Source: Plumapathes pennacea (taxonomy: Eukaryota > Cnidaria > Anthozoa > Antipatharia > Myriopathidae). Taken from it: DNA of 64,000 nt. The notes beneath the pieces are model-generated. The model had not been told where the DNA came from and did no database searches. It saw nothing but the letters and a program-made list of their open reading frames with translations. Shown piece after piece: positions 5,137 through 49,384 of the stretch. The stretch covers positions 13,955,578-14,019,577 of the forward strand of contig OZ038470.1 in the NCBI GenBank assembly GCA_964036295.1. Reading direction: 5' to 3'. Made by a program: the position numbers and the translations under genes. How positions within the stretch are numbered: position 1 is the stretch's first letter; every line of letters begins with the position of its first letter.

Positions 5137-5526
5137 GTCAGTGTTATTGTTATTAATGTCAGCTTTTATCTATTTATATATGGATGTGTTATCTGCCTTC
5201 TATTTCATCTTTTTATCAAATGAGTGATTACATATTTAGCTGTGAAACAACAAGTAAAACTTTACACCTAACTCAAAACTTACTGTCGTTGTCAAAACAC
5301 TACACTGTAATAATTGTATTTGACCTCAAGAGCAGAGGACCATAATGTATAAACCAACAAGAGCTTGTACAGCAGAATCAGGACAAGTTTTGCGAGATGG
5401 ATTGTTCCAGCTTCTTCCCAAACTACAGGGCGTAGTTTGAGTAAATATATAGTCCGCTGCTTGAAACAAGTCAACAAATTACTAAACGTGGCAAGCACGG
5501 CCTAGGTTTATATACAAGTTGTTAGT
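5137..5526. repeat. Dispersed ~0.4 kb repeat, copy 2
   Basis: This is the second copy of the 205-606 block, in the same orientation, with small insertions and deletions. The two copies bracket the lectin-like gene region, so unequal exchange between them could delete or duplicate that gene. Confidence 0.75.
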
Positions 5527-5812
5527 CAACACAATATTAGGCTATTCACATACGCAAGACCGGTAAAATCCTTTGGTTTGGAGCAGACCCGGGTAGAGGT
5601 ATATGATGGGGAGCTGTTCTAAACAAGCAGCACTTTGGGTAATTTTAGTTGTTTCTATTTATAGACCTAATCGAGCGCAGCTTTACGGTAGTTAAAGCAG
5701 CCCTGTCGATCGTCAGCTTGTCAGTTACCAGTCCGGCTGTCGTTGGCTACCTTTAGCGCCTCAGGGTGATTCTCTTTGTTGCGTATATGAATAGCCTAAT
5801 ATTGTGTTGTTC

Positions 5813-8239: not shown

Positions 8240-11200
8240 CTAGCGTTTTTGTTGACTGGAACGGTGACTAGTTCTTGAAGAACCTGAACCTAGAAAAAAA
8301 GAAAAGGAACAAAAGAAGAATTAATATGGTATGATTTGAACCACTCTCAAGAACTATCTTCAACGTTATAATATACTGTGACAACTCTTTAAAAAAACGC
8401 TGAAAAACATTCCGTTGTGGCATCCAACAAAAACATCAAGCGTAGAATGTGATAACGGAAAGGTCTCACATTACCTGGTCTGCTGCGATTGGACGGAGGT
8501 CTGGGGGGAGACGCGGACCGTCCTGGAGGAGGAGGGGAAGAGGTCCTGGGCCTGACCTGCGACTGAGAGTCCGGTTCGCGAGGTATCTTGGGTCTTGACG
8601 AAAAAGCAGTCCTGTACTCTTCACTAAGGACAAACAAATCAGAGAATTTACAAACTCTCCCTCTAATTTTAGAGGTCAGGTCAAAGTCACACGATCTGAC
8701 CCGCCCGTCACGGATTGCACTGACAAATTCTGAAATAAAATAAGCTTATTGCTGCGGTATTTGACCAGCCTTTTTTTTCTTAGGCGTCCATGAACGTGAC
8801 AAAATTTCGGCAACCTTGACTTGCGACTTTCTGCAATTTGCGGTTTGCGGGCTGCGGAATACGGCAACCTTTAAATGCCAAATTATTCGGAATGCATTGG
8901 CACTGCAAAAAGCTAAGCACACCTGAAATATTGAATTCGAGTTATACTCACCTTTCTGAAAGACCGCTGACTTGGGCCTTCTTTGCTACCGCGAAGTTTT
9001 CTGTTGGAAATCAGCATTGCAAAGATATCACTCCAATTAAGAACAGAATAAGACCGTCTCTGGGAGAGACAACAAAAGCATCGTGAATGTGAACAAGCCT
9101 AACCTTCAGAGCTGGCCTTCGGTGTTGGTCTTGACGATGCTCTGGACCCAGAAGTCCGCGGTCTACCCTACAAGTACACACAGGCTATCAGTGGAAGAAT
9201 TCCCGCGATTTACGGGTTACGATCTGTGTTACAATCGGGTTAAGATCGGGTTACGATCTGGTTACGATCGGGTTGCGATCGGGTTACGATCTGGTTACGA
9301 TCGGGTTACGATCGGATTACGATCTGGTTACGATCGGGTTGCGATCGGGTTAGGGTTACAATCGAGTTATGATTTGGGTTACTGGGTTACGATCCTTCGA
9401 TTCAGGTCATAACACAAATCCTCAATGAGTCCAGAACACACCATATACCAATACGACAATAAATCCTTTCCTTATATGGTGCCAAATACTTAGTACAAAA
9501 TAAAAATACTCACTCCATCAGATGTTGGTCTGATTGTTGTCGTTGAAGGTCTTTCCGTGTTTTCTGAAAAGGAAATGGGCATGAACAGTTCACTTGGACC
9601 AAGAAAAACAAGAAACGGGAAAGGCGGGACATTTTCTTCATATTTCCCACCATCACAGACTTTGTCCCTTCCCTTTTCGTTACGTTTTCTCACCTGGAAA
9701 GGATTCCATTGCCTTGATTCCCGGAGTGGTGGGTCTGGTCAGCGGATGGTCTGGATCCAGTGATGACTGCTGCCATAGATAACAGAGTCACACTTTAAAA
9801 CGTGCTCAATAAAAACAAGCCAAGCAGGTTAAGCAGGTTACACCAACTAGGTTACTCCAAGCAAGTTTAGTAGTTTAAGACAAGCAGGTTTAGTAGGCTA
9901 AGCCAAGCAGGTTTAGTAGTTTAACACAAGCAGGTTACACCTCCAAGGTTACGCCAAGAAAATGTAGTACGTTAAGGCAAGCAGGTTTGGCAAAGCAGAG
10001 TTAGCAGGTTAATCCAAGCAGATAAAGTGTTGATAACGTACCTTTTTCTTGCTCTTTATTGCTACCGACGAGGTCTGCTTAACCTGGAAAGGAACGTCGA
10101 TAACTTATTTTGTAGTCTTCGTAGTACACGCAGTATACATGCCTCAAACACAATCACAGATTTCGATAATCCTAATTCTCAATAAGGAGAAGTCGGCTTT
10201 TCTGACAATTCTGAAAGCTTTACATTTGTTCGCTTTCATTAGTGTTGTGTCACGAACAAAAAATAATACGCTACCAAAGAACGGGGTGGAGGAATAAAAG
10301 GATGGATGAATGAATAAGGAAGGGAAGGGAAAGGATGCATCAGTGATGGTGAAATAATTTACTTACACTGGAATACTCAAGAGCGAGGAGTTTTTCTCCA
10401 GAAAGTTCTCCTGGAAGTGCAACTAACTTTTCGTTTTTGTCCAGTTCTGTGTCGATGGCATCTCCTTCCTGACAAAAAGAATAAGATTGACCAACTTCAG
10501 TTTTCTATTTCATGAACGAGACTCCTACATAGAAAGTAATGCGACAAAATCAAACTCAAGTTGGAGTGCTTAAGCGGCCTTTGTTCGGATCCACCAATCA
10601 GTAGCGACGAGAGAGCACGTGATTAAGAGGAAATGACGACAAAGAATTGTCAGAGCTTGGTAGATTGGTCAGTTGTCGCTGTTGGCTGCGGAAAAGAAAC
10701 TGTGAGATGTTCTTTACAACTAAGTATTGTGGAGTTACCTCGTCGTCGTCCTCTTCGTCTTCATCGTCAGATTCGGGGTCATTAGTGGCAGCTGGATCAT
10801 CTGATGGCAAAATAAAAGGACGTGTCACTTCTCTTCTCTTCATTCACCTCATGTAGGCTTCATATAGGCACGATAACTGATGCCTGTTTGGCTGATAACA
10901 TTGGGAAACGAGCTCGATGCTGTAACTAATCAGCGAACTCTGAATCAGAAAGTAGGCCAATATGCCTCTATTTCAAAATGAGGCCAACTGCCGAAATCTT
11001 TCACATGAAAATTAGTTTTATTCACACGCAAGTTTTCATACAAACTAAACTCATTTTCATGTCACACGTTTTTCACTGGGTTTCTTTTCGAAACCGGGGC
11101 AATGATCGGGTAAATCGGAAAATGGATAATCTACTGGGATATCGTATTCTAACAACTTGATCATGTGACCGAACCTGCATTTAGTTGTCTGATAATAAAC

Positions 11201-11738
11201 TGTATCTGCCTCGTCATGTCAGGATTCTCATCGTTCAGGAAACACTCGAGAATCTCCTCCATACCCTGCAGGTTAACAACACAACATGTTCCGCTGGTGT
11301 GAAGAGACAATTTCACAATCTCACACACAAAGTTAGAGCTGAGGAAATTCAATCAACCTCCTCTAAGACGGACACCCACGGGACCAGCTCCAACTGTCCG
11401 TTTCAGAGAGGTGTCCGTCTTAAAGGGGTGTCCTTTAAGAGGGAAGTGACTATAGCGTGCGTGTGTGGTAAAACAGGTGGCCTACATAGCTGGCGGTCTC
11501 ATTCGATGCGGTTGAAAAGTGATCACGGGCGCCATTTTGTACTAGTGGCAGATGGGAGACTAAGAGCGAGTGACGAAATTACGGGGCGGGGGGAGGGGGG
11601 CCGGTTCGACCCCGCCCCGTAATTTTGTCACTCGCCTTCAGTCTCCCATCTTTGCCACCAGTACAAAATGGCGCCTGTGAACACTGTTCAACCGCATCGA
11701 ATGAGAGCGCCACCAATGCAGGCTATAACACAGGTAGA

Positions 11739-11769
<31 letters not shown>

Positions 11770-14700
11770 TACATCCATTAGACACAGACATAAAACAGAC
11801 AGACAAAGTAGTTCACTTCAGTGACTTACCATTGCTCGTGCTTCCTCTTTAACAGCTGGAAGAACAAGAATGCTGTAGAGTGCTCCGTTGACATAAGGAC
11901 GGATCTTAAACAAAAAGCATTGCACTTCAAAGGTACTGAAATAAGGCTTTGTTCTCTTCTTACCGCGTTACTCTGTGCTGCCCAACGTCCTTACCTCCTG
12001 ATTTTCATGTCCAAGCAAATCACTAAGAACTTTTAAAATGCTTCCAGCGCTTGTAATGCAGCTGCGCTTGCCTGAGAAGTAAATGAAGGTCACGTTTTTA
12101 AATTCTAATTCCAACAACAACAAAAAAACATGTACGCGGTTTGCGGGCTGCGGAATACGGTTTGGTGCGTTCAACCTACCTGCTGATCGTAGGCACAAGT
12201 TCATGAGCAAAGCCACGGAGTACTCCAGAGTATAGTCCGACAAGTTGTCATGATCATCCAGGAGTTGAACCAACCAATAAATCAACTGACGCTCAATCAT
12301 CAAACTCTGCAATCTGCGCCTGCGCAAATGTTCACCAGAGTCAGAAGTATCCAGGCATGTTAATCTTACAACACACCGCGAAGCTATAGTGAAGCAAAGT
12401 TCTGGTTGAACACTAAGAGCACAATATTCCCCGGATATTTTATTCAAACTGACAGACTGCACCCACAGTGCCCTTCTCTTCAACAACACTATTAGTTACT
12501 AAATATTAGAACCATTTGGGATACTAACAGTTTTAATTATGGAGAGAAATGAAAATACCAACCTCAGACTCAGTTTCTGTAGGGTACCCAAAATATTTTC
12601 ACAGGTTAGTGAAGACTTGGACTCCGTTGTGAGAGCAGCATGCAGAATCTGTACAAGTTCGGGATTCTGGGCCAAGTACGATCGTCCTTTGGCGACAAAG
12701 AGGTTATTAGTTCTACAATCTAAGTGAAGCCAAAACTTGATGTTGTCCAGACATTTTTGTCTTAGTTTGTCGCTTTACCAAGACTTGTGTTGTGTTTCCA
12801 CAAGAATTTGATAAAAAGTACAACTTTTACTGGTCGGTTGAGTCCTTGAGCCAACGTTGGTCATTGATCCATTGGGCCCAAAACTACTTGCGTTAATCAG
12901 AATTTGTTTTTTGTTTTTTAACTACTTCCTTAAGTACCATAAATGCGAGGATTTAGAGAAGTAAGCACATCATACAACAATCTGGTAATGGTTAATAGTT
13001 TGTGTTCCACATTATAGAGTGGTTACCTGCTGAGAATGAAGCCAAGGCATTGAACAATCTTGCCGTGTATTCTCTGACCACTTCACTGGGAGATGCGAAT
13101 AAATTGAGAACACCATCCTATGAAAGCAAACCAACGAGATATTGTGACGTAACCGCGAGCAGATAAAGCAAAAAGAAAAACAAGAACGAAAAAGAACAAG
13201 GACAAGAACAAGAAGAAAAATGAAGACAAAGAAGTAGGAAAAGAAAAAAAGACAAACACAAAGAACAAGAAAAAGACGGAGAACAAAAACAAGCAGAACA
13301 CAGGGGGAGGGGAAGGGGGAGGACCACGGATGAAGAAGATGTGGAGCTCAAGTGAAGAAGAAGAGGAGGAGGAGGACTCACTCTGAGGTTTCCAGGCACA
13401 GAACAGCCGATTACATCGTGTGCGATGTAGGCTCTGACAACGGAGTCCCTCTGTTCTACACTGGCCGTTTGCGTTAAGCGCTTGAGAAAGAAAATGTACA
13501 TTAGCCAGAGACAAACTTCAGTAAATAGTGGAGATTGGGTGCTCTCTCTTGCATGGTTCAAGCTGGTCCGGCCAATGCACTTTAAGATCAAAATTTGCAA
13601 GGGGACCGCACGGCCGAAAGACGTATTTCCGCGGCTATCCATGAGTTGATTTCATGACACTCACCCATCTTAAAGCTTGCAGAAGAAAAGATTTCTTTCT
13701 GTCTGATAAAGAAAGAAGGTCATTCTTGATCGCTTCGTAGTCCAAAGATGACACGATGTCTACGCTCTCAGCTAGCCTACAAAATAAATGCAGGAGCAAA
13801 AACCGTCATCCTAGGTTTCTTTAGATCAGTAGCTTTAAGGTCGTCTAGGTTTCATACGTCGACCCCTAGTCGATCCATTTTATACGTTTTTTTATCCACG
13901 AAGTCCAAATCCAGTTCCCTTAGTGCTAGTTTTCCATATTAACGAGTGTGGCTTTCGCGCGCACTTTGTCATGGTGGCACTTCGCTTTTGCTTTCAGCGT
14001 GGACGGGCCTCTATTAGCGTCAATAGTAAATCTGACAATTGCCGTTTGACAACATTTATAGCAACTCCATGTTATCAGTGGATCTGTATTAGCGAGATAG
14101 GATACTCTTACCCAAGCCCATTGTTAACCAGCGAGGCCCTCAGTATTGAACTTGCCTAAAAAAATTAAAATAAAACTTACACACAACCAAATGCATATGT
14201 TCTACACATAAACGTTACTACAAGAATAACGAATGACGATAGATCTTAGAACTCCACAAAATTGAACAAGTTGCATAGAAGTTTAACTGAAGTCAAGCTT
14301 AAAATGTAAGCCTGTAGTATTCATTTCATCTGGAAGCTTAGGACCTTATTGCTGCCAATAGTTGTTTTGGACCGGCAATCAAACAACGCAGCAATATGCA
14401 AAATATACTGTATACAATATTACTCTCGACAGACACCCGAAAACGACTCCGCGTATTAAGAAACAGGCGTACCAATAGATCAGTGCATTACATACAAAAA
14501 AAAAAAAAAAAAAAAGGCGCAGAGAAAGGTTGACCATAAAACTGACCGTTCCGGGTTTGGTGATGTCAACAGACTCCTGAGTTGAAGTGCTAAAGAGTCT
14601 TGCACAGATGTCTTGTAGGTATTCTGGGGTGACCTGGAAAAGTCAATCCTTACTTTGTTAAACACGAGCAGTTGTTAGTACAGTGAACCCTCTCTAAGGC

Positions 14701-17700
14701 GGACACTCTCGGGACTAGATTTAGTGTCCGCCTTGGAGAGAGTTCATAGTTGCAGAAAAACAAGTGAAAGTTGGCAAGGACCAAATCTGCATGCTGTCTG
14801 CCTTAGAGAGGTGTCCGCCTAAGAGAGAGTTCAGTTACAGAGAAACAAGTGAAAATCGGCAAGGATCAAATCTGCATGCTGTCTGCCTTAAAGGTGTCCG
14901 CCTAAGAGAGAGTTCAGTTACAGAGAAACAAGTGAAAATCGGCAAGGATCAAATCTGCATGCCGTCCGCCTTAGAGAGGTGTCCGCCTAAGAGAGAGTTC
15001 AGTTACAGAGAAACAAGTGAAAATCGGCAAGGACCACTGAAATCTGCATGCCGTCCGCCTTAGAGAGGTGTCCGCCTAAGAGAGAGTTCAGTTACAGAGA
15101 AACAAGTGAAAATCGGCAAGGACCACTGAAATCTGCATGCTGTCCGCCTTAGAGAGGCATCCGCTTAGAGAGAGTTGACTGTATCACTCTTCATGAAATG
15201 AAATATTGTTAAAGAGTCAAAGCAATCAAAGAAATTACCAACCAAAAAGAAATCGATAAATTACTGCGGTGAAGTGCGCGGTGCATCACAAGTAAAAATG
15301 ACTCGCTTTGTTACCATCTTTCCTCGGACTGCATCCTCTAGCGAGTCTACTAGTTCTGCTGCTATTCTGATCAACTTGTGATAATCCGCCTGAAACAGGA
15401 AAACACAAGCGATTAAAACCCAGCAAAACACAGGAACCAATTGCGCAAAAAAAGCGTTAACGTTGTCGTCCTATAGTTTGTTACTTGTTCTGCAACAAAA
15501 TGACATGTAGCGAGTTGCGGCAATTACATGCTGCAAAAGGTACATCTTACTCCTACTCTTGTTAATAACATCAGGCTGCAACACAGTACTGTTTTGCACA
15601 AATAGTTGCGAGAAAATATTGCCCCTACTTCACCTTTAAGGCCTGGCAAATTAAGGCATCAACATTGCGAGCGCGCGCACGTTTCCCAAATGTTGCCTGT
15701 ATTGCCACGCGCGAAACATTTGCTGTGGACACAGCATTTGTGTCTTGAACACAAGAAATGTTCCTGAAAAACCTCGCGCAGCGTTGTTGCCGCACGTTTT
15801 GCCACCCAGGAAACATCAAAGGACACAATGTTGCCGTCACAGTGCGTCTTTTTTTGCCTTGTTCTTAGGCCACAAATCACCTGAAGCTTGGAACAGCTCC
15901 TAAAGTATCGTGAAGAGCGGCGTTCAGTCTCTGCCAACTGCAGCTGCAGCAGCCTCACTTGGTCAGCATGCTGCTTCCTTTCTACAAAATGCAATACAAT
16001 AAAGAAGACAACATTCAGTACAAGTTCGGCTGAGTCACACAAAGAAAGGGACTTGATCAAGTTGTGCAGCGTACAGCAGGAGGAACAAGATACCACTGGT
16101 CACATTTTCAAAAGTTTCTGACTCTTTGCTGGCCCAAAATACATTTTCCAAATAATCTACAAAATCAGACACAAAGGACAGCTCTGCCCATTCCACCTTT
16201 TCATGATTTGACTAAAAAAAGGATAGCAAATGTTTGGTGTTTAAAATGTCACTGTTTTAGTTGTGTTTACAGTGTATTGCCTTTCCTGCAAAATGTTCCT
16301 CAAAACTTCGACTTCCCCTGACCAACACCAAAGTTCCCTGTGTTTTTTTCCCCTGACCACTGGAAACCCTGGATAAAAATATTAAACAAAAATATACCTT
16401 GCTCTAGTTGCTGTGGTCCAACTTTCTGATCATTTTACACAAGTTAGGGTAAATATTATATACATTGAGTTCACTAAGCAGTATAGCAGTATATAACAAC
16501 ATTTATCAACATTTAACATAGTTTACATAGTACGTACTTGAAGGATGAACATTTGGTATAGGCTTGCATCCCAGCAACTTTTCCAATACAAATCTTCTTA
16601 GCATTAATATATTCTATAAAATAATGCTGTGAGCCTGAAATTGTTCACTACTACTAATATTGTTTCATTCTCTATCCATATGGCACTTAAAACGCTGTTA
16701 TGATGAATTTTCAGTTACATGATGGGATTTTGGTGATGTGACCAGGCTGATGCAAAGGGCCTATTCTTTCAATAAGAATATTAAAAGTTGGTTTAAATTA
16801 GCAGCAATAAGACAGACACATAGAAAGTGCCTTCATCATATGAAAAGAAAAAACTCTTGGTGTCTTTTGACATTGGAATGGCAATATCAAGCTTGCAAAA
16901 AAATGTGAAATCTGTACTTCTTAGCACTTATTCAAAGGATACAAAGAGATTATACAACTGAGGCTTCTCTTCAGATTTCAATGATGAATGCAGAAATGCT
17001 TCTAACTGATTCATGAGATCTGTACTCCAGGAGCTCTGAAGCAAATAAACAAAATTATAGTAAAAGCATTCAAGGACGAGAAGAAGCTAAAATACTTTAT
17101 GCACTGCCAGGTTTTTGACATGCAACCTGGAATCCACTTGTTCCAATACTATATAGATTGTGTCCATGCTTGCAATACTGATCATGTTTATAGGGGATTA
17201 AACCTCAAATGCCACTACATAGTACACTTCTAATCAGTTTCTATTTCAAACTTTAACCCTGAACCAGCATTCTTTACACCATGTAGCTTCCACATAATTT
17301 TCTATGGTCTTACCACAAATATAGGTTGAAACGAAGGATGCACAGTGGGATCCGGAACAAATGGTAAAGCATAATATGGCAGAAATTCTGTAGTCTGACT
17401 CAGAGCAGATCCTTGATTCTCCAGGTAAGCCTTAAACAGACCCATGGACTTCTCCAGCCCCTTTTTACTCTGCAGAAAGAGAGATAAAAGACAAGAGAGG
17501 AATTATGTGATTGCAAACTCGTGGTACAGTACGACAGAAAACATGGAGTGCAGTTGAAAGCCCATACAAGTTGCAGTGAGGTTCATGTGTACATAAAAAC
17601 ATATTTGCACCGTAGACTCATTTCGAATCAAAAGCAACCTTTAATGACATGATGATTGATGTAACACCTATACAGAACATCCCAAAATGATGTAAAGTAG

Positions 17701-18863
17701 GATTTAATTCAATTAGAGTTTGCAGGAGACAGTGCCTGCAATATGACATTGTATGAATTACTGACAAGTTTACAAGGAGTGAAAGATGGTCGAGACACAT
17801 TGTAGTGTATGTACTGTGTGTAGAAGTCCCTCCTGACTAAAGTGAGAAAGCTGGGCCAGGTTTGATCGATGCACATGGTAGCTCTAGTGGACATTTATAA
17901 ATTAAATAACCTAATATAAAGACATTTAGACATTAAATCCGACATTAATTATCATAGTGTGCCACCCACCTGCTTTCCACTGAGAATTGGATAAACAGCA
18001 AAGTAGATGTTCAGGTTGAACTCCAGCTTTTTACATGTGGAGTCTGTTTCCTGTAATTCAGCTGGCACAAACTTGTTCCATGAAACAAAGAATTCCTTAT
18101 GACTCCCATTCTTAAAAGCACCAATCAGCTGATTCTGCAGAGAAACACATTTTAGATTGATACACATCAGCTGTCAAACAGCACATCAAAAATGATGCAA
18201 TGGCTAAATGCATAAAACAACACTCAAAACAATATTGCCTTTTTATCATGCTACAAAAAACAATAAAATATACTGTCCCGGTACTTTACAGTAAGTTCTA
18301 CTTCTACTTTATTGACTGATAAAGCAGTATCTCCGCATCACATCAGTTTTAGAGATTGATCCCCACCTACAGTATACTTAAAGCTTTTGGTCACGAATTT
18401 GTGCAATTACCTGGATTGCATCCTTCTGTGAAACATCTCTTGGTGAAACAATCTCTTTCACTTGTTTCCCAAGAGTGCGAAGCTCGTCGTCAAATGCTGA
18501 TGATGTCTGGCTATAGTTCAAGTAGTCTAGGTACTAAGAGAAAAAAATAATAAATCGGTCATAACAACTACTAACAGCACTACATAAAATCGTCTAGATT
18601 TGTCATTTGCATTTTTTCTATTGCATTGCCGCATCTAGTTTCGAGTCTTTAATAATTCCCTCTTAATATTCTGTTGTTTCTGTATTGCCTCAACTGAGTG
18701 CAGTCAATATGTACTGTAAATTTTATTTGACTTTGTTTTGTGCATATTTCAAATATATCTTGAATCAAGTAAATATTGGTTGAAAAATCCAACTAAAATA
18801 AATATCACTCACCTCTTTTACAACACTATTCAAATCTGACTCAACGGCTATCACTGCGTCCAT
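8240..18863 (-). CDS. ARMC9: ARMC9, LisH and armadillo-repeat ciliary protein
   Basis: Twenty-seven coding exons, all phase-consistent, sum to 2364 nt (787 residues): 18863-18813, 18533-18411, 18134-17970, 17469-17314, 17035-16943, 16425-16398, 15981-15881, 15389-15315, 14633-14547, 14155-14112, 13776-13665, 13480-13382, 13117-13027, 12686-12563, 12313-12180, 12071-11995, 11904-11830, 11265-11175, 10800-10739, 10468-10367, 10077-10042, 9769-9694, 9563-9514, 9167-9104, 9000-8952, 8623-8475, 8289-8240. Identification rests on blocks near-identical to vertebrate ARMC9, such as [31 protein letters not shown] and [12 protein letters not shown] LisH motif lies at residues ~8-40, a coiled coil at ~197-240, armadillo-like repeats at ~308-575, an acidic stretch ([11 protein letters not shown]) at ~580-596, and a Ser/Pro/Arg-rich tail follows. 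Length is close to the human long isoform. ARMC9 is a basal-body/ciliary protein of the Joubert-syndrome ciliary-tip module. It is divergently transcribed from nucleolin 286 bp away. Introns carry minisatellites and a hairpin element. Orthology is very secure; the small exons at 16398 and 10042 are somewhat less so. Confidence 0.95.
8835..8863. repeat. Short exact repeat in an ARMC9 intron, copy 1
   Basis: The motif 'gcggtttgcgggctgcgg' followed by 'aatacgg' occurs here and again at about 12135-12161. Both copies are in ARMC9 introns in the same orientation. It is too short to assign to a known family. Confidence 0.55.
9229..9395. repeat. GGGTTACGATC minisatellite (12-bp units)
   Basis: Tandem variants of 'gatcgggttac', 'gatctggttac' and 'gatcgggttgc' alternate with a 12-bp (24-bp higher-order) period in the intron between ARMC9 exons at 9514 and 9167. 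Because 12 is divisible by three, it keeps a spurious open frame; it is not coding. Confidence 0.85.
9813..10018. repeat. Degenerate 'aagcaggttta' minisatellite
   Basis: About eight imperfect units of roughly 25 bp are built around 'ccaagcaggtttagtagtttaa' words, spanning the intron between ARMC9 exons at 10042 and 9769. It is non-coding. Confidence 0.75.
11355..11435. repeat. Dispersed 'tccgtctta' hairpin repeat
   Basis: The stretch 'ctctaagacggacaccc' to 'gaggtgtccgtcttaaag' is a short inverted repeat. Relatives are at 14680-15185, 26955-27085 and 35820-35910, with a possible fragment near 35080-35140, so it belongs to a dispersed family found repeatedly in introns of this window. It lies in an ARMC9 intron. 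Confidence 0.65.
11475..11724. mobile_element. MITE-like near-perfect hairpin (arms ~115 bp)
   Basis: The left arm runs from 'cctacatagctggcggtctc' through 'cgggcgccattttgtact' to 'aattacggggcggggg'. The right arm is its complement, ending 'gagagcgccaccaatgcagg'. The loop at about 11591-11606 is G/C-rich. It sits in the ARMC9 intron between exons at 11830 and 11265. No coding capacity is visible, so it is a non-autonomous foldback insertion. Confidence 0.85.
11738..11770. repeat. (AG)n microsatellite
   Basis: A run of about 15 AG dinucleotides directly follows the hairpin element in the same ARMC9 intron. Confidence 0.95.
12133..12163. repeat. Short exact repeat in an ARMC9 intron, copy 2
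   Basis: This is the second occurrence of the 25-bp motif seen at 8835-8863, same orientation, within the intron just below the exon 11995-12071 / 12180-12313 boundary. Confidence 0.55.
14680..15185. repeat. ~90-100 bp tandem repeat array, about five copies
   Basis: Each unit contains 'gagagttcagttacagagaa', 'acaagtgaaaatcggcaagga', 'tctgcatgc' and 'gtccgccttagagaggtgtc'. Copies differ by small indels ('atcaa' versus 'accactgaa'). The array lies in the ARMC9 intron between exons 15315 and 14633. It is an expanded form of the dispersed 'tccgcctta' hairpin repeat. The plus-strand open frame across it is a repeat artefact. Confidence 0.9.
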
Positions 18864-19149
18864 TGTCGCTTTTTTCAACACATAAGTTAGGAGAATTTGC
18901 CATAGAAACAAAAAAAATCAACATTGTTTAAAAACTTCCGCCATGTTTGATTTTAACACGCACCACCACAAAGGCTCTCGGGATATAAATTTGGTGAACT
19001 AGTGCGAGTCTCACGCGGTCTATCTTGACCGCTGGTGAGGTTGTGATACAGCTCGGCTTGTTCTTTTTTCTGTGCCCTCTGGTTGAGAGCACGTGGATTG
19101 TCGTAGCCTGTGATAACTGACCGAATTTGTCCCCGAGAAAACAGTAAAA
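18864..19149. promoter_or_regulatory. Bidirectional promoter region, ARMC9 / nucleolin
   Basis: Only 286 bp separate the ARMC9 start codon (minus) from the nucleolin start codon (plus), so both 5' UTRs and core promoters must fit here. A TATA-like 'gatataaattt' occurs near 18981. Transcription start sites cannot be fixed from sequence alone. A shared or overlapping promoter is an inference from the spacing. Confidence 0.7.
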
Positions 19150-25907: not shown

Positions 25908-26686
25908 TTAAGTTCTGGGCATCACCCCTCCTTTCCGTCCCCTTCCCGCACCTCGGCCAATGGGTGTGGCTTTGCCGCCCCGGCCTCGGTTGCTCTTCAG
26001 GCTCGCTCTGCTCGGGGCTTTGCTGACTGAAAGAAAAAGATAATGATCAACTTCAATTTTCTCCTTCAGTTTCTCACTAGAAATACATCAAAGAGTAGGG
26101 AGAACTTGGCTCTTTTTTGATACTTTGCTCAGATGAGAGCTGACTAAACGTTCAATTCTCACTACATCACTCATACATTTTCTTCTTGAAGGTTGGGGGA
26201 ATCTGTATTTTGAGCTTGAGTGGGATTAAGCGAGGTTTTCAATAGCTTTGCCCAGATCTCCGACAGAATAGGAAACTAAACTAAGAACATCTGTGCGACC
26301 GTTTACCAACCTTGTTGGTTCTGAATTCGCGCCTTGTTTGGGGCACAGTCCTCCATAAGGTGCTTCTTCCAAACCTGTAATATAATCAGATTGTTAGACA
26401 GATAAAGAACGATTTTATACTCGACGAAAACTGCCAAATCGCTTTGTAAAGACAACTGACAATGCAACGCGTTGTAATTTTTAAACATTTGGTGTTAAAG
26501 AAACAAATACGATACAACGCTCATTAAACTTGATCAGCTTCAAGTGAAAAGTAGTCATGATTTGGCACTCACCTCATCTCCTGATCCAAGACTCTTGTGG
26601 CACAGTGGACAGTTGCTAGACTTCCCTCCTTTAGGTACTGGATGTGCAATCAGAAAATAAGAATAGCTGTTCAACCTTTGGTGGGT

Positions 26687-26717
<31 letters not shown>

Positions 26718-29700: not shown

Positions 29701-32700
29701 ACCTCTATCTTCACGAGTGCTCTCTCAACTTCCCGCACTTTGACACCATAATCTGCTGGCTTAAACATAACTAACGCCACTACGCACTGGAAAACACAGA
29801 ATCTTGAAAATTGTAAAAGAAACCCCCTCATTGTTACACTGAATACGCAGAATCAACGAAACAAAATCACAACCAACCAACCAACCAACCAACCAAACAA
29901 ACAAACAAACAAACAAACAGACAAAAACAAGAAAACAAAAAAGAAAACCAGCTTAACAAGGAATCGTTGAACATGCAGCGCTAACAGTAAATGTTGTGAT
30001 CTGATCTCGTCTGTGGTCTCATTCCTGTCTTTCGATCGCTTACCCGGCTTTACCGGAGTCCAGTTCCAGTATGGTCAAGAGCTTCTCGATAATTTCTATC
30101 CTACTCTTATACAGTTTAGCCTGCAACAAAGGAAAAACGAGTACAAGGTACTTGAGAGAGAACATCATCGTTTCGGAAACAAATCTCCAAGTCCCGTAGC
30201 AAATTCACTGACAATAAAATCCCAACTTTTCACTGAATTTAGCAAGAAGTTAGAATGTCCCTGACTAGTTGATCGAAAAAACCCTGACTTTTCCCAAACC
30301 CTGAAAAATGAGGTCTTCTGAACTTTCCCAGTAAGAGAACTCTGTTACTTTTGTTACACAGGAGATTGAACAAAATAACACGCTGCTGAACTAACCGGTA
30401 CTTGGTGCTTCTGTTTGAATGGCTGCGTCACTAACTCTGGGATGGTACCGTGAGCCTGATGAACACAAAAACAAAGCAAATTGTGTCAACATATTCTTTA
30501 CACGGATCACAATAATTATAAATCCCTTGACAAAGTAAATAAGTCAAAGCCAACTAAACCAACTTACCACTATATCTTTTAATGATGATAATTCTAGGAT
30601 CATGTTTATTGACGCCTCACGGGTTCTTGGAGCCTAACAAGAACACATGTAGGTTAACTAATTGTTCTCAGCTATGAAACAAATAGATTTTCCGAGGGTG
30701 GCACGAAGCTAACACGAAGTCTGTTAGGGTGACCCTTTATATCTTTATTGGTACAGTATGTATAAACACCGGTCTTTAGTTCGGATGAGACGCAGGCTAA
30801 TATCCATATGGTCACCCATAAAATAACAATTTAGTTTACTACGAGCAAACTTAAACGAAAATAGTCAGTCGCGCTGTACGACTCTATCTCACCATTTCGC
30901 CAGACTTGGCAAGCAACGGCGGTACGACCTGGGAAAGAAATCAAGCAAAAAAAAGAAAAGAAAAGAAAAAAAAAAATGGATCTCATGAGGCAACAAAGAA
31001 AAGACGCAGACCAAAAACCAAAAACCGAATTAATTCAAGATTTGTTGTGGAACGTTCCTAAAGGATACCTTTTCTGTCATGCTGGACAACTCCGATTTGC
31101 CAATCCTGGGAAAACAAGATCAACACACAAAAACAAAAACAAAAACAAAAACAAAAAACAAAAACTGAGTACGTAGTGTAAGTTACTTGCTTGTGATACA
31201 CGAGGAAAGTAGCTCGAGGAATGCAGTCACGCTGAACGTTAGATCAAGTGTTGTAAACTGACAAATAAGGCTAGTGTGCCAGGAATATATACCCACATAG
31301 GCAACAGCTTGAAGATAAACACGACTTACTTATGACTGGGAATGTACGTATTCGTTAGGGACCGCACAACTGTTAGGCACACGTTAAAAACCTAAAAAAA
31401 AAAAAAAAAAAAAAAAAGATAACAAATAGATAGGCCAATCAGCCTTCATCTGAGCAAACTATCAAGTGGCAAATTCTCCATACTGTATATCTCTTGTGAA
31501 AAGCTGAAGGAGAAAATTGAAGTTGATCATACTCACTGAGAAGACTGTGTCTTTGAGTCCCCTGTTCAACAGGAACAAGACAGCTTTGTAAACAAGTTTG
31601 GGATCCTTGTCTTTCGACAGCTCTGGAGCTGGGGACGTCAACTCGTCGTTGAGTTTCTCCATTGCCTCTTGACGAAACTTCCACTGTTTTGAATAGGCAC
31701 ATTGAACCTGCGCATGAAAAACAAGTTCACTTACATAATTAAGCCTGCATGTCCGTAAACAAAGCTATCCGGTAAAGTCAACAACGCGTTATAGATCACA
31801 TATTATAAAAGGCTGACTACCAAGTATTACAAACTGCACTGAGCCTTTGAGAGTTTTGGCTCTTGAGAAGAGATACTCATGGTTACATATTAACATGTAT
31901 TGCCCATAGTTCATCTCTTTTAGTGCGTCTCTCTGCTCATTTTTACCAAGACCGTTTTCTAATCAGAGACAATTAGATCACAGTAGCAGTGTTCAAGATG
32001 AGACAAGTTTACATGATATTAATATGACCAAGTTCAAAACAACGCTTTTGGAATAATACTCACGGCCTGTCAGAAAACCAAATTCGTACAATAACAAGTG
32101 TACCGTAAATGCCCTAACCTCCCCCCCCCCCCCACGCTCTTCTCTATTAGCCCCACCCCACCCACCCCCATTCGCAGTCGCCAGGATGAAATGGGGGTTG
32201 GTAGAGTGGAAGTGGGTTACTGAAGAGAGGTAGCCTGCAAGAGTTTTGCCTTCATCGTGATTTGGCAGCTATGGGAAGTAGACGCTTGTGGTTATTAACG
32301 GCTTTTCTACTCACTCACCAAATGCTCTCCAAACACATCAACTACGAATCCAGCTGAACGCAAGTCGTTCTCTTTCAGTGGCTCCGGCATTCCTGGTAAA
32401 ACAAAAGCACTCTGAGAAAACCTCAAGCAATGATACAGTAACTAACTCTAACTCAAAACAAGAACAAAACATGGATCTTAACCATTTTTCTAACTTCACG
32501 AGTTCAAGAAATTGTCTAACATAACCAGCAAGAAATTGTCCAGAATATACGCTAGACTATTCATTCTACGCCAATTTCATTCTATTTACGCATTTATGCA
32601 TGCACGCTCCGCGTAGACCTATGCTGAAATAGTGCGATGTCTGCTGTTAATGTTTCCGCTCAACAAAATATATAGTATAATATAAATAAGTGGTATACCT

Positions 32701-35700
32701 CGTTCACACCAACGCTTAAGCCTGTTTAAAAGGTGTTTAATAAAACTTGTTTTGTTCGGTCGGCCGTTCACAATGCACGCACGGCAAAACTAAACTGGTT
32801 TAAACCCGTCCAACTAAACAACCTGTGCGAGGTGGTGTAAAATATTGTGTAATTAACACAACATCAAAACAGGTTTCAGAAAACGCAGTCTAGAAAACTT
32901 GGTTTAATTAAACAGGTTTAGTTGGTGTGAATAGAGTAGTAGTGTCCTTCTTCATACGCTGTGTGCCAGCTGAACGTGACGCCTTCCTGTGACTTATTAC
33001 TTGCTACTTACCCGAGTCTTCTAACGGCGGTTCTGCAACTAAAACCAAAAACAAAAAAGTTTACGTAACACTGTAATCAGTGGTCACTTCAAAGTCTTCA
33101 ACTTCAATAACAGTCTTAATATTTGCATAGAGAACTCAGCCATCAAATATCTTGCTTAGACAAAAGCTGAATAAACTTATTAATTCTCACTCTTAGAAGG
33201 CTGGGATTTTGAACTTGGGAGTGGAAAGGTTAATGAACAAAGCAACAGTATAAAGAAAGGCATCATACCTTCATCTTCTGTCTTCGGTGGCCTGTATTAA
33301 AACAAAATCAAAGAGTTACCAATTCATAACGATTACACTTGGTTTAGGTTTGGTCTGATGTGTTTTTGCTCGCCTCATTGATCGGCTGTGTGATTGCTTT
33401 GGTTTTGGTTTTCGACAGTCATCCGTAAAACGCTCTAACGATTGGAATAACTTAACTTCCATCGTTATTAATGCCTGATTCAACAAGTAGTGCCTAAAAC
33501 TAAAACCAATACACACAGCAACCGGGAACAAGACAGATCCAGCAAAGATTTTGTGAGGCATTCAAACTTACGCTTTGTCCTGTAATGCCGGCAATGGGCG
33601 GTCTTCGTTCTGTACATTATCCTACAAAAATCATAAAACCCTTTACACGACAGATATTTGATTTTAGCATTGGATGATTTCCAGTCAGAGAATTAGAGCG
33701 ATCCTGCCCTTGTAAAAGGTAGTGACTAAAATGTTACAACCTTTTCCACTTCAGATCATGTATAACCAAACCTAGCTATTAACAAACTTACAGACAATAT
33801 TCCACAGCATACTTATAGTATACCCTAAACCTAAAGCTAACCCTAATCACATACCTAATTCTAACAAAGATATCCCTAAGGGTTTAGAGTAAGCTTTACG
33901 GCTTTGTAGTCAAAACGCGTATAATATATCCATCCATCACCTCACAAACGAACATGTAATGCAAGAACGTACACGTTTAGTCTTCAAAACATGAACAATC
34001 CTGTCAACACACGCTTTTAGTCCACGCCCTGGCAACTTACCCTCAACGGAGGAGACTGGGGTGACTCGCGTTTGGGGAGGTCTGGGGAAGGCCTGAGACT
34101 AATGGGCGCGGGTGTCAGAGTCTTGTTGCTTTGTTCCTGAGGGAGTGGAGATGGTCTGTAGGGGTTTTGTGTTGCTATTGGTGGCAGTGGTGATGGGGCT
34201 GAAAAAAAAAAAAAAAAAAAAGTATTTAACTACATTATAGGAACTGATTGACTATACGGGAAGGCTCGGCCCAAAAGGGGTCCAATCTGGAGCCACTGGT
34301 AAAAAAGGGTCGCCATTTCGACTCCAGAATGATATTTGAAAGACTAAAGGTTGAAAGCCTGTGTGGAGCTTCCCCGTATAAAACTTGATTAAGTGCCCGC
34401 CCTCCCCGAGTACTAAGTAAACTCACTTTTATCTTCAAGCCGGCGTTCACGTGCCTGCAGATGAAAGAGGAAATGTCAAATTTACTCAGTACAAGTCCGT
34501 TTACACTGAAGGCGACAACTGCACATGTTTTGTGTTCCGTATGCTTCATGTTGCAAGCGCGCGGCCAGCAACGTTATTTTAGTTAAAGTCTCTTGTGTGA
34601 CTTCCGATACATTACTTTCACTATAAACCTCGCAAATACACGTCAGACACCTTTTCAACTCCCCGAGAGAATTTTTCCGGATTCTGAACGGGAGTAACAT
34701 ATAGAATGTATTTCAATGCAAAATGCAGACGTCTCCCTCTGGGAGCTCAAAAACTACCTAACGTGAGACGGCTGTAATCGCAGGCTACACTTTTAGCAGT
34801 TACTTCTTTTACTGAAATCTAATTTTATCGCGATATCGCGTGCAATTACAACCTGACGAATCCTGTACTGTACGTTCAGTGTGAATTGACCTAAACAATG
34901 CAGTCTACGCAGTTTTGTCAGCGAGAAGTCGACGTTGGACTTACACCATTCAGCTCGAGCAGCTCTTTGATGTCCAGTTGCTTGTAAACATACAGTCTGA
35001 ACTCGTCACTTTCTTTCTGTAAATGAGTAAACAAAGAGTAATTTGACTGAGGGACCAATCGGTATTACCGGTCATTTGGTAAGTGGTCGCTTAAGAGAGG
35101 TAAAAACGGGAAGTAGTCGCTCAGGGAGGTTCCACTGTACATAGGTTAAAACTATTGTTATTAACTCCTAATCCTGGGCGTTTTATGCAACCGGGTCCAA
35201 GCTTAATTGAACACCAATGCTTCTAATCAGTTAATATCAAGTAATAGAAAGGAACACACTTTTTTCTCCATCGCCACATCATAGTTCTCCTGTTCGACAG
35301 CTCGTCGCTTCTCCACTTCGAATTTGCCAAGTTTCTCGCCGACTTTGTACAAATCCGTGATGACCTGACTTAACTTCTTGGCATAGTCATACCTTTCCAC
35401 TAAAAGAGGAAAACACAACAGTACAGTAGTTACAGTGAGAGATATTGGTTTCTACTTGTGACTTCCAAAACATAAAGCATTTTAACTATTTCTTCCAACT
35501 TAACCAATCAATTTGAGGTCGCAATCGACATGAAGATCTACCATTAAAAAAGGGCTTTTCGAGTAAACTAGAGTTTCAATATCTCTGTTGTCATGCAAAA
35601 CTCTCTTAACGGTTGTTTGGAGCTCTAACCCAGGATTAATCAAATTCTTGACCAACAAACTGCTGTGTTCCACCTCCAACATACCTTGCACAGCTTCTCG

Positions 35701-38700
35701 CTTCTTTTCATCCAATCTTCTGATCAAAGCTGCAGTTTCCTGATCCTGAAATACAAATTCATGCACATCAGACATTTATGAAGTTAAAAAATTGAAAAAG
35801 TTCACTGGTTCTTCATGATAGAACCAACTGCCTCTAAGATGGACACCCTAGAACCAGCTCCAACTGTCCATTTTAGAGAGGTATCCGTCTTAATCAAAGA
35901 GAGCTCAGTTTAGAGTACATGACTGGGGAAATGGTAGGGATGGGATAGGAGATGTTTTAAAAATCACCTCACAATAAACTCTAGTTATAGACATAAAACT
36001 ATGTTTTAAGTACAGAATAGGTGGTTTGCTTAATATTTTTCTTGCGGTCCTGCAAAGAAGTGGACAATATTTAATAAGCTTTCACCTACTCTTTTCTCGA
36101 GTCTTAAAAAAAAGTAACAATAAATAATAATAAACACAACATATTTATAATAAACATTAGAAGGACCAACAAAACATCAGAACTTGAGGGCAAAACAGCT
36201 CACCTGGTACATATCAAATGCAAGATCATCCATAGGGGAGACATACTCTGGCCTGACAAGACAAGAATTAACCCTTTCACTCTCAAGCTCAAAATACAGA
36301 TTCTCCCTATGAGTGATGTAGTAAGAATTGATACTTGAATCATCTTTCATTATAGCATGCCATCAAAAGCCAAGTTCTCCTTACTGTATGATAAATTTCT
36401 GGCAACAAACTTATGGAAAAAGTTTAAGTTGATCACTCTTGGAAGTAAAAGGCTGGTCAATAAGGCCGGCAAGAGCCTGAACAACTCACATTTGGAGTAC
36501 ATCACACATTCCAATATTCAGAAGCTGTATGTGCATACACTTACTTATTGATTTTGCCCCATAGTTTAGCATTGCTGTGGCTGCCATGGGGGTTCATGTA
36601 ACCCTGCAAGATGCTGTCCACATCTCTAGGCTGTAACAGCCGCAACAATAAAAGAACATCTAAGGTTTGTAATAGCATATGGCAACATGTGTGATGTGTT
36701 GTTGCTATCATGCTAAAACACAAGTCTCATCTCCTCATGTGCGTAATTAAAAAAATTATAATGACAACTTCTTAAAGTTTCCATACTCAATAGAACATTG
36801 TAATAATATAATTATAATTATTATAATTATAATTAATTTATACTAGTACTAAAATTGTATTATTATTTTATTATGGTGTTATCAGTCACAAATGGAATAC
36901 CTAATGGCAACTTGAAATTTCGTCATTCATTAGGACAGTCAGTGTACAGTGTAAAAAGTCTGGCCAAACGACTTGCTCGTAAGAGAACTTGTAATAATAT
37001 TGATGCCAGCTGTTTTGTGAAATTAAAGTTCAATATTATGGAAGATGGGAAAAATGGAAATTCCACACTGGTTTGGAAAGCTAATATTGTGGTGGAACAT
37101 AGTAGAACACAGGTCTCTTACATAGTCTCCCTCCAAGGCCTCCTGGTTTAGCACATCAAGAGAATCCCCAATTACATTCACAGCAACTAAACCAACCTAA
37201 GAAAAGATGTATTTAGATTCAATCAATAGGTTATATTGAAACCCATCGCACATAGGTGATCAATGAGTTAAAATCAAGAACTTCTCTACAAAAGCCAAAG
37301 AGATCATGCTGTGATACTAAATAAATATTACTTATATTTATGTCTTAATTGGCAGAAATTGCATCTGCATGCACTCAGGCTTACTTGGTTGTACAGATTG
37401 TACTTGTTGACATAGTTCTTGTGTAACACCAGCTTGACAAATTGGCCCTCAGCATCCAAATGGATAGACTTAAGTTCCCTTGCCTGTCAAAAAAAGTAAT
37501 TATTAAAAGTATTAGTGAGTAATTCAGCAGAGCTGGTAGGGGGCGAGTTAAACTGAACGAAAATTTGTAAAGAATCCCAACAGGTTGGAGGCTAACTAAC
37601 CAGTTGGCTATTACATAGTGTGGCAGAGGATTTGAACTATTAAGAAGAGATTGTGCAGCACATACTTTAAACTGTGTGTCCTCATTCTTGGATAAACCAA
37701 CATATCTGGGAATGAAATAAACAAGCAGATGTTATTGTAAATACTAAACATCTCTCCTACATAATAGTGTACAGTTTGTACAGTATAATGTTCATTTTGG
37801 TCTGTTCAAATAAAAACTCCACTTACCCAAGACGCTTGAAGTTACTTGGCTTCACAGAGCGTGAATGACCACCAGGATCTTGGCTTACAAAGATTTCCAC
37901 TTTAGTTGCTGTGAACAAGACAGCAAGGATTTAGAGAATATAATACAAAAAAATTGACATAACTTACCCAACCATATTAATTACATACTCAATGTTTTGC
38001 CTAATAAAACAGCCCAGATATATTAAATGTGTACATAAAAATAATTACATGATAAATCAAGAGTATACTATTTAAAGGAGTATACTTAATTAAGGTGATG
38101 AAGTTTTAAGCTGTACAATCAATACGATCATGAATTTTAAACTTACAAATCAAGTACTGATGGGAAAGAAGTTGAAGCTTGCGAACCCGCATCGGATTTT
38201 CCATTCTTAAGATCAACTCTTGTGGATACAGACAAAACCTGGAAACCAAACATTTATATATATATATATATTTTATTTATTTTTTTATTTATTAATCATT
38301 TATATGGACTTACAATACTGTGCAGTAGTACATGACTGCATGTTTACAATATATTATTTATAAATTTGTTCTTTGACTTCCCAGTGAGCTCACACCCTGC
38401 AGGTGGAGAATCTTGGCTAAGACCTTGACCAAAAATCCTGTACCATCTTAGCAAAGTCTGACCTTGGCAGGATCTTGGGGAGTTCTTGTGCGACCTTGAC
38501 AAAGTCTTATATGATCCTGAAACAATCTTACATGATCTAGGCAAGATCTTACTATCCATGATCTAATTATTGTCAGAATCGTACTTGGTCTTGGCAAAGT
38601 CACTGTTGATGGTCTTGACAGTAACTTAGTGACATGATATTGGGAAGATCTTACTGCAATCTTGACAGAATCTCGCATGATCTTTCAAAAATGTTCAATC

Positions 38701-39367
38701 TGGGAATGACTGACCCTGGGACAACTCAGCACAAAAGCTAATTTCAAACCCTGTTGCTAGCAAAATGTCTAGCTTGAATTATTTTACAAACTGAAAAAAA
38801 AAAATGCAAGCTAGGCATTTGAAGAGTAATATGGATTGGGCAGCTGTTCTATCAACTGTATGCAATTTTATATTTACTGACCTTGAGGACACCCATCCTT
38901 TTGTAGCTGGGCTGTGAACCTAGGGTCAAGAGGTCAACAAAATGAAACCTGGTTTACTGTATCATTATCACAATATTATAACCCATCATCCTGGCAAGAA
39001 CTGAAGTCATCAAAATCACAATTGTACCATAATGTTGCACTTCTTATTTTCTGAGAAAATACAGTTGTGGACTGTGGCCATTTACCTTACTGATCTAATT
39101 CAGCTGTTTGCTTCAACTCCCACATACTCATGTCAATTTTCCACTTTTTTTTTCTATATTGCATGTAGAGTGTCTATCTGAATTTTTTTAAATGTATAAT
39201 TATGAAACAACTCGCAAAGGGATTGTCGCCTGTGATCTAAAATGGGACTTATCACGATCAGTGACAATAGTAGCAAGGTGGTTATTATTTACCTCTAGTT
39301 CCTTGGCACTGTGTTGTTCTTCTGCACCAGACCAGGACAGTACTCGAAAGGGGATTTTCTTAGGCAT
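25908..39367 (-). CDS. CEP104: CEP104, TOG-domain ciliary-tip protein
   Basis: Thirty-seven coding exons sum to 2664 nt (887 residues; human about 925): 39367-39293, 38919-38882, 38238-38147, 37908-37827, 37705-37666, 37483-37385, 37196-37122, 36630-36545, 36252-36204, 35745-35685, 35399-35260, 35016-34945, 34454-34427, 34198-34041, 33621-33572, 33291-33269, 33038-33012, 32392-32319, 31707-31537, 31391-31330, 31105-31069, 30928-30893, 30633-30568, 30455-30396, 30120-30044, 29448-29421, 29135-29055, 28805-28680, 28410-28360, 28201-28160, 28063-28027, 27490-27457, 27278-27170, 26918-26780, 26628-26573, 26374-26311, 26026-25908. Domains: N-terminal jelly-roll-like domain (~1-150; MPKKIPFRVLSWSG start), coiled coil (~213-300; RYDYAKKLSQVITDL), Ser/Pro linker, TOG array (~398-671), second coiled coil, then Cys/His zinc fingers (~727-850; CIFCGEQNPNF, CDHCAQVVEI, CPKCKEAI, CPLCHKSL). 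CEP104 binds tubulin and EB1 and works at ciliary tips and distal centrioles. The human SKIP motif position reads SKAP here. Orthology is very secure; the shortest exons are less so. Confidence 0.95.
26685..26717. repeat. (ACA)n microsatellite
   Basis: About nine 'aac' trinucleotides lie within a CEP104 intron between exons 26573-26628 and 26780-26918. Confidence 0.95.
26955..27085. repeat. Dispersed 'tccgtctta' hairpin repeat, CEP104 intron copy
   Basis: It contains 'ttcagttacagagaaaca', 'tgtgaaaattggcaagaacc' and the inverted 'ggacacctccctaa' / 'agggtgtccctcttagaggg' arms, all shared with the array at 14680-15185. It lies in the intron between CEP104 exons 27170 and 26918. Confidence 0.75.
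29205..29400. repeat. AAATTTCG-rich foldback repeat, copy 2
   Basis: Words such as 'caaatttcg', 'cgaaaattcgc' and 'gcaaaatttcgaa' recur, and the end 'ttttgcacagcactgtaa' mirrors the start of the 3778-4015 copy. It lies in the CEP104 intron between exons 29421 and 29135. Confidence 0.65.
29639..29672. repeat. Poly-C tract
   Basis: An almost pure run of C of about 30 nt, interrupted by single T or A residues, in a CEP104 intron. Confidence 0.95.
29871..29940. repeat. (CCAA)n / (CAAA)n microsatellite
   Basis: Tandem 'aacc' units pass into 'caaa' units in the CEP104 intron between exons 30044 and 29448. Confidence 0.9.
32703..32931. mobile_element. MITE-like element with TTCACACCAAC terminal inverted repeats
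   Basis: A 229-bp block starts 'ttcacaccaac' and ends 'gttggtgtgaa', an exact 11-bp terminal inverted repeat. Internal sub-repeats such as 'aaacaggttt', 'ctggtttaaacc' and 'ggtttaattaaac' are also palindromic. No target-site duplication is obvious. It lies in the CEP104 intron between exons 33012 and 32392. No coding capacity is visible. Confidence 0.8.
35820..35912. repeat. Dispersed 'tccgtctta' hairpin repeat, second CEP104 intron copy
   Basis: 'ctaagatggacacccta' and 'gagaggtatccgtctta' form the inverted arms around 'gaaccagctccaactgtcc', matching the copy at 11355-11435. It lies in the intron between CEP104 exons 36204 and 35745. A shorter related fragment may be present near 35080-35140. 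Confidence 0.7.
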
Positions 39368-47602: not shown

Positions 47603-47748
47603 CCAAGATGGACGACGTTCCTTCAGCGAATTGAAGTCGTCAAGATTCCCGCCAATCATTACCCATGACGCCCTCGTCAGGAGAACGAGGCGACAACTTG
47701 CTGAGGTGGTAGTTGTACCCAGTCTCCCAGTGCCTTACGTTTAGTTAC

Positions 47749-49354: not shown

Positions 49355-49384
49355 GTTTAGTTACACAGTTCCCGACAGTTCCCC

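What the first reader, a model, noticed from the sequence alone, without database searches (positions are those of the whole stretch)
8240..39367. Ciliary-tip genes ARMC9 and CEP104 flank nucleolin in one 31-kb block
Seen: full-length, phase-consistent ARMC9 (minus), nucleolin (plus) and CEP104 (minus) lie side by side with no other gene between. Known: ARMC9 and CEP104 act in the same ciliary-tip module mutated in Joubert syndrome, but in human they are on different chromosomes (2q37 and 1p36). Inferred: either an ancestral linkage lost in vertebrates or a lineage-specific gathering of co-functional genes, which is unusual for animals and could matter for co-expression.
Basis: partly seen in the sequence, partly recalled or inferred. 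Interest (0 to 1): 0.85.

Follow-up and report, generated by a model that had tools for sequence, protein, structure and literature searches.

The report
Old neighbours: ARMC9, nucleolin and CEP104
Three ordinary animal genes sit side by side; two of them (ARMC9 and nucleolin) are also near neighbours in mice, so this looks like an old neighbourhood rather than a newly gathered set of cilium genes.

Summary
In detail: ARMC9 (minus), nucleolin (plus) and CEP104 (minus) are adjacent, each readable as one GT-AG spliced chain (836, 709 and 916 aa; steered models) with strong Pfam or PDB matches. So the conserved half of the block joins a cilium gene to a nucleolar gene; here their start codons diverge across 286 bp. 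CEP104 (human 1p36.32) is the unexplained neighbour. Some paralogous pairs tie 1p36 to 2q36-q37 (PAX7/PAX3, CROCC/CROCC2), so an ancestral linkage split in vertebrates is possible, but support is thin and no other invertebrate genome could be searched. Nothing found supports a functional cluster: RFX-site tests were inconclusive, and no direct ARMC9-CEP104 interaction is described (PMC12170345). Interest is modest.

The parts
8240..18863 (-). ARMC9 gene, 27-exon model, 836 aa: LisH motif, CTLH-like domain, ARM repeats. Last exon uncertain (8218 in another run)
   Evidence: Gene model (steered; differ in parts); Pfam; no PDB relative
18864..19149 (.). 286-bp gap between the divergent ARMC9 and NCL start codons; presumed shared bidirectional promoter. 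Contains weak RFX-like sites 18896-18909 and 19103-19117, CACGTG at 19090, and a YY1-like AAACATGGCGG on the minus strand (read by eye, motif recalled)
   Evidence: Sequence and CpG o/e; motif tests; CACGTG; transcription start sites not known
19150..24323 (+). Nucleolin gene, 9-exon model, 709 aa: acidic serine-rich N-terminal part, two RRMs, RGG tail
   Evidence: Gene model; RRM_1 two stretches; best PDB match Nucleolin 9cb5
24324..25907 (.). 1.58-kb gap between the convergent NCL and CEP104 stop codons; no gene recognised
   Evidence: Sequence; reading frames (by eye); CpG o/e 1.16
25908..39367 (-). CEP104 gene, 38-exon model, 916 aa: N-terminal domain, TOG domain, zinc fingers; small exons between 38463 and 38911 have no homology support
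   Evidence: Gene model (steered); Pfam; PDB 5jo8, 5lph, 5lpi

Best explanation
This is an ordinary stretch of animal chromosome (probably cnidarian; the taxon was not tested) that keeps an old gene neighbourhood. Shown: ARMC9 and NCL are divergent neighbours here with 286 bp between start codons, and they are close neighbours in mouse. Inferred: the two use one bidirectional promoter, with nucleolin's housekeeping transcription keeping the site open, and such sharing slows their separation. Inferred, less sure: CEP104 stood beside them in the ancestor too. In vertebrates the ancestral chromosome was duplicated, and ARMC9 plus NCL survived on the 2q37 copy while CEP104 survived on the 1p36 copy. 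That both ARMC9 and CEP104 work at the ciliary tip is then incidental.
For: Mouse chr1 table: Armc9 87,985,962-88,107,425, B3gnt7, LOC383538, Ncl 88,175,889-88,190,626 (PMC3420870, section 15 part 1 read). Human ARMC9 and NCL lie in one 2.76-Mb deletion (PMC7261772 passages). CEP104 lies near TP73 in 1p36.32 (PMC6920427 passages). Paralogous pairs tying 1p36 to 2q36-q37: PAX7 1p36.13/PAX3 2q36.1 (PMC2211742 passages) and CROCC 1p36.13/CROCC2 2q37.3 (PMC6585022 passages). The mouse table also lists Nppc, Alpi, Ecel1, Efhd1, Ngef, espin-like, Hes6, Per2 and Kif1a on the same mouse chromosome; that their paralogues NPPA/NPPB, ALPL, ECE1, EFHD2, ARHGEF16/19, ESPN, HES2/3/5, PER3 and KIF1B lie at human 1p36 is recalled, from no call. 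In amphioxus 25% (3,950 of 15,884) of neighbouring genes are in bidirectional promoters against 12.83% in mouse, and 54.5% of 372 putatively ancestral ones were lost in stem vertebrates (PMC6292497 passages).
Against: No second invertebrate genome was available, so adjacency of CEP104 outside this window is untested. The paralogy support is mixed: of 7 families with a 1p36 member in the table passages of PMC6585022, only 1 (CROCC) has a 2q37 member, while E2F, FAM110, GRHL and ID have theirs at 2p25, and STMN and TCEA show members on 8 and 20 (that paper chose families of chromosomes 1, 2, 8 and 20). The same paper raises an alternative to genome duplication for such regions (start of abstract). 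Four searches for a 1p36/2q37 paralogon gave no paper that treats it as such. Shared chromosome ancestry does not by itself imply adjacency. No transcription data for a shared promoter. In mouse the two genes are not directly adjacent, and their orientation in mammals (recalled: ARMC9 plus, NCL minus) is not head-to-head.
Confidence: 0.45

Rival explanations
1. Only ARMC9-NCL is an old linkage. CEP104 arrived next to NCL later, by a rearrangement in the lineage of this species, and its being a cilium gene is chance.
For: Mammalian evidence covers ARMC9-NCL alone. Gene order inside ancestral chromosomes is usually scrambled (general knowledge). With an assumed 25,000 genes, some same-module pair among 20 cilium modules of 10 genes falls within two positions in 12% of simulated genomes, and some pair among 40 Joubert genes in 11%. 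The 1p36/2q37 paralogy support found in papers is thin.
Against: 1p36, where CEP104 lies, has some paralogous pairs with 2q36-q37, which a random arrival would not predict.
Confidence: 0.45
2. The block is a functional cluster: ARMC9 and CEP104 are kept together because they need common control as parts of the ciliary-tip module.
For: Both belong to the ciliary-tip module with CSPP1, TOGARAM1 and CCDC66, and earlier work cited there reports functional and biochemical interactions within it (PMC12170345 passages). RFX-like sites lie between the ARMC9 and NCL starts. [quoted passage not shown]
Against: Nucleolin lies between them, and their start codons are 20.5 kb apart. CEP104 has no RFX site at one mismatch or fewer within 1 kb upstream; at two mismatches it has three upstream and one inside the gene, a density like the rest of the window. 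No direct interaction is described between the two proteins. The genes lie apart in human.
Confidence: 0.05
3. The neighbourhood is an assembly error joining unrelated pieces.
For: Reads and the rest of the assembly could not be examined; the genome search did not complete.
Against: No N in 64,000 bases. Each of the three genes can be read from end to end, and no repeat of 60 bases or more was reported inside the two gaps. ARMC9-NCL closeness is seen independently in mouse.
Confidence: 0.05

Closest known systems
Mammalian Armc9-B3gnt7-Ncl neighbourhood (mouse chr1; human 2q37.1)
   Same: ARMC9 and nucleolin are close neighbours (68 kb apart in mouse)
   Different: B3gnt7 (and LOC383538) lie between them in mouse; CEP104 is elsewhere (human 1p36.32); orientation in mammals is recalled as not divergent
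Bidirectional promoters of neighbouring genes, as counted in amphioxus, mouse and zebrafish (PMC6292497, passages)
   Same: Two genes in 5'-to-5' orientation with 286 bp between start codons, one of them a housekeeping gene
   Different: Transcription start sites and shared control are not shown here
Ciliary tip module (CEP104, CSPP1, TOGARAM1, ARMC9, CCDC66; PMC12170345, passages)
   Same: ARMC9 and CEP104 proteins with their family domains are encoded here
   Different: The module is a protein network, not a gene cluster; nucleolin is not among its five members, and I did not recognise the other three genes in the window (no dedicated search)

Membership tests
ARMC9 | LisH motif, CTLH-like domain and ARM repeats of the ARMC9 models | tested here: met
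   Pfam PF21051, PF23138, PF21050, all above curated cut-offs
CEP104 | CEP104 N-terminal domain, TOG domain and CEP104 zinc fingers | tested here: met
   Pfam PF21038, PF21040, PF21039; PDB 5jo8, 5lph, 5lpi
CEP104 | SxIP motif (SKIP) that binds EB proteins (PMC12170345) | tested here: inconclusive
   By eye on the model the C-terminal stretch reads SKAP; two SPLP tetrapeptides lie in the middle linker. Exon choice not proven
Nucleolin | Acidic N-terminal region, RRMs, C-terminal RGG tail | tested here: met
   Model; two RRM stretches; best PDB match Nucleolin. Vertebrate nucleolin has four RRMs (recalled), this one two
Bidirectional gene pair | Adjacent genes in 5'-to-5' orientation at short distance (1 kb limit recalled) | tested here: met
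   286 bp between start codons
Bidirectional gene pair | Shared regulation of the two transcripts | not testable with these tools
   No expression data at hand
Ancient microsynteny (ARMC9-NCL) | Same genes close together in a distant animal | tested here: met
   Mouse table in PMC3420870; one distant lineage only
Ancient microsynteny (with CEP104) | Same genes close together in a distant animal | tested here: not met
   Human CEP104 lies at 1p36.32, ARMC9 and NCL in 2q36.3-q37.1. No other invertebrate could be searched
Functional gene cluster of co-regulated cilium genes | Common cis-regulatory sites or co-expression of ARMC9 and CEP104 | tested here: inconclusive
   One RFX-like site at one mismatch in the ARMC9-NCL gap, none at one mismatch or fewer within 1 kb upstream of CEP104; 7.6% of random 286-bp intervals hold such a site; co-expression not testable

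The most novel reading that the evidence does not exclude
ARMC9-NCL-CEP104 is a three-gene block already present in the common ancestor of cnidarians and bilaterians and kept by promoter sharing. Vertebrate genome duplication then split it between the 2q37 and 1p36 copies by reciprocal gene loss, which would make it a small, datable case of two Joubert genes separated from one ancestral locus.
Probability: 0.3. Interest if true: 0.45.

Novelty: new member of a known kind. Interest (0 to 1): 0.27.

Why it matters
If the block is ancestral it is a clean marker for animal gene order and for how vertebrate duplication splits neighbourhoods. It also warns against reading function into the linkage: the part shown to be conserved joins a cilium gene to a nucleolar gene. 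Otherwise it is an ordinary piece of an animal genome.

Tried and rejected
Functional cluster, tested by RFX (X-box) sites. The single best 14-mer in the window (one mismatch to GTTGCCATRGMAAC, 18896-18909, 33-46 bp before the ARMC9 start codon; expected 0.12, reached by 9 of 100 shuffles) used a pattern that I wrote after seeing the site, so it is biased. At three mismatches that pattern has 15 matches against 18.8 expected, and a looser one has 10 against 13.9. Against the published consensus GTNRCC-N0-3-RGYAAC (PMC10530576) the site has two mismatches. Another site, 19103-19117, has one, but 20 sites at one mismatch or fewer lie in the window, and 7.6% of random 286-bp stretches hold one. 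The single-site motif GTTGYCA occurs once in the ARMC9 stretch (513 bp upstream) and not in the CEP104 stretch (both -1000 to +200). Judged inconclusive.

Nucleolin-hosted snoRNAs: no Rfam match at gathering score in the window; at E up to 10 over 18600-24600 there were 7 matches, each far below its gathering score.

Relatives in held collections: one scan of viral contigs with joined CEP104 pieces gave none. The prokaryotic genome collection was not scanned for these genes.

Literature: (ARMC9, CEP104, synteny, cnidarian; at least 3 of 4) gave 1 paper, a zebrafish review whose one 'synteny' passage concerns togaram1. One search (nucleolin, ARMC9, bidirectional promoter, microsynteny; at least 2 of 4) found 44 papers and listed 12; among those 12 only PMC3420870 holds ARMC9. 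Irimia et al. 2012 on ancient microsynteny is not held, so whether ARMC9-NCL is in its list is unknown. Searches for the 1p36/2q37 paralogy gave partial support from PMC6585022 and PMC2211742 only.

Full report
OBSERVATION. Reading-frame fragments of both strands (the output of 18 was cut) showed long recognisable stretches of ARMC9 and CEP104 on the minus strand and of nucleolin on the plus strand. A dynamic-programming gene model on the window's own sequence, in its final form, gives one phase-consistent chain per gene with GT-AG at every intron: ARMC9 8240-18863 (27 exons, 836 aa), nucleolin 19150-24323 (9 exons, 709 aa), CEP104 25908-39367 (38 exons, 916 aa). Other settings overran the gene ends, ended ARMC9 at 8218 or broke ARMC9 and CEP104 into three pieces each. 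Exon edges and small exons are therefore uncertain; gene identity is not. Family tests: ARMC9_ARM 2.6e-49, CTLH_Armc9 4.7e-40, ARMC9_LisH 7.2e-07; CEP104 TOG 1.1e-60, N-terminal 8e-47, zinc finger 8.4e-37; two RRM stretches for nucleolin, whose best solved relative is Nucleolin 9cb5 at 8.6e-50. CEP104 matches solved CEP104 TOG and zinc-finger chains. ARMC9 has no solved relative at E up to 0.001.

LAYOUT. ARMC9 and NCL are divergent with 286 bp between start codons (18864-19149); NCL and CEP104 are convergent with 1.58 kb between stop codons. The 286-bp gap has CpG o/e 1.0 against 0.45 across the NCL gene body, as expected of an unmethylated start region and a methylated active gene body (inference); 18% of 300-bp windows reach 1.0 as well. 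The gap holds a CACGTG at 19090 and RFX-like sites, discussed below.

In mouse, a published gene table (PMC3420870, section 15 part 1 read) lists Armc9 87,985,962-88,107,425, B3gnt7, LOC383538 and then Ncl 88,175,889-88,190,626 on chromosome 1. Human ARMC9 and NCL fall in one 2.76-Mb deletion at 2q36.3-q37.1 (PMC7261772, passages). So two of the three genes are also near neighbours in mammals. A given pair would fall within three positions by chance with probability of about 6 in 25,000, or about 7 in 10,000 for any of the three pairs (my arithmetic; gene number assumed), so this is very likely real conserved linkage. It joins a cilium gene to a nucleolar housekeeping gene and needs no ciliary explanation. 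In the same table Pde6d lies about 267 kb from Armc9; it too is a Joubert gene (recalled), a sign that such closeness also occurs elsewhere.

CEP104. Human CEP104 lies near TP73 in 1p36.32 (PMC6920427, passages). 'Different chromosomes in human' does not by itself argue against ancestral linkage, because some paralogous pairs tie 1p36 to 2q36-q37: PAX7 1p36.13/PAX3 2q36.1, stated to derive from a single ancestral gene (PMC2211742, passages), and CROCC 1p36.13/CROCC2 2q37.3 (PMC6585022, passages). The mouse table adds Nppc, Alpi, Ecel1, Efhd1, Ngef, espin-like, Hes6, Per2 and Kif1a on the same mouse chromosome; their 1p36 paralogues are recalled, from no call. Duplication followed by reciprocal loss would put ARMC9 and NCL on one copy and CEP104 on the other. 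Against this: of 7 families with a 1p36 member in the passages of PMC6585022 only CROCC has a 2q37 member, four have theirs at 2p25 and two show members on chromosomes 8 and 20 (that paper chose families of chromosomes 1, 2, 8 and 20); the paper itself raises an alternative to genome duplication (start of abstract); and shared chromosome ancestry is weaker than adjacency. The CEP104 part of the explanation is therefore about as likely as a later arrival.

CO-FUNCTION. Both proteins belong to the ciliary-tip module (PMC12170345, passages), but that paper says that no direct ARMC9-CEP104 interaction has been described and that a reported weak co-immunoprecipitation could not be confirmed. RFX control was tested by motif. 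The best site near ARMC9 is attractive in position but depends on a pattern written after seeing it. With the published consensus (PMC10530576, passages) one site at one mismatch lies in the 286-bp gap and none in the 1 kb upstream of CEP104, while 7.6% of random intervals of 286 bp hold one. This is not evidence for a shared programme; [quoted passage not shown] Chance: with an assumed 25,000 genes and 500 to 900 cilium genes, ARMC9 would have at least one within two positions with probability 0.08 to 0.14, and 20 to 64 such cilium-gene pairs are expected per genome. For the five-member module alone the chance is 0.0016, but the module was picked after the fact from many.

PROMOTER SHARING. 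Divergent pairs are common in an invertebrate chordate: 25% (3,950 of 15,884) of neighbouring genes in amphioxus, enriched in housekeeping functions, against 12.83% in mouse and 7.84% in zebrafish, and 54.5% of 372 putatively ancestral ones were lost in stem vertebrates (PMC6292497, passages). ARMC9-NCL fits that picture: divergent and close here, close but not adjacent in mouse. No transcription data were available.

VERDICT. Observation confirmed; interpretation partly supported (old linkage likely for ARMC9-NCL, open for CEP104; functional gathering not supported). The decisive test, gene order in other invertebrates, could not be run: the genome collections offered are prokaryotic, the window's own assembly did not complete, and a main paper on ancient microsynteny is not held.

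Noticed in passing
47747-49356: Near-perfect long inverted repeat (arms 327 nt at 100% and 246 nt at 99%): a foldback element or an assembly palindrome.
   Followed up: no
58678-59493 minus; 53-56 kb plus: Pao-type retrotransposon peptidase fragment (PF05380, 1.7e-30) and a weak RT-like match (RVT_3, 5.4e-4, below cut-off) from hand-joined frames: parts of the right flank are mobile elements.
   Followed up: partly
56829-57240 and 57565-58049: Two 21-bp minisatellites (19.6 and 23.1 copies) that are open in several reading frames on both strands.
   Followed up: no
1.5-3.6 kb minus: Pieces of a secreted lectin-like gene: EGF and F5/8C galactose-binding domains; a PAN-like match (7.7e-4, below cut-off) came from a query with stray leading letters.
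   Followed up: partly
294-609 and 5210-5528: Direct repeat in three blocks at 90-96% identity, 4.9 kb apart.
   Followed up: no
25908-26026 minus: The CEP104 C-terminus reads SKAP where the EB-binding motif of CEP104 is SKIP (PMC12170345); two SPLP tetrapeptides occur in the middle linker (read by eye).
   Followed up: no
19150-24323: This nucleolin has two RRMs, and the second aligns best to residues 260-347 of 347 of solved nucleolin 9cb5; vertebrate nucleolin has four (recalled).
   Followed up: partly
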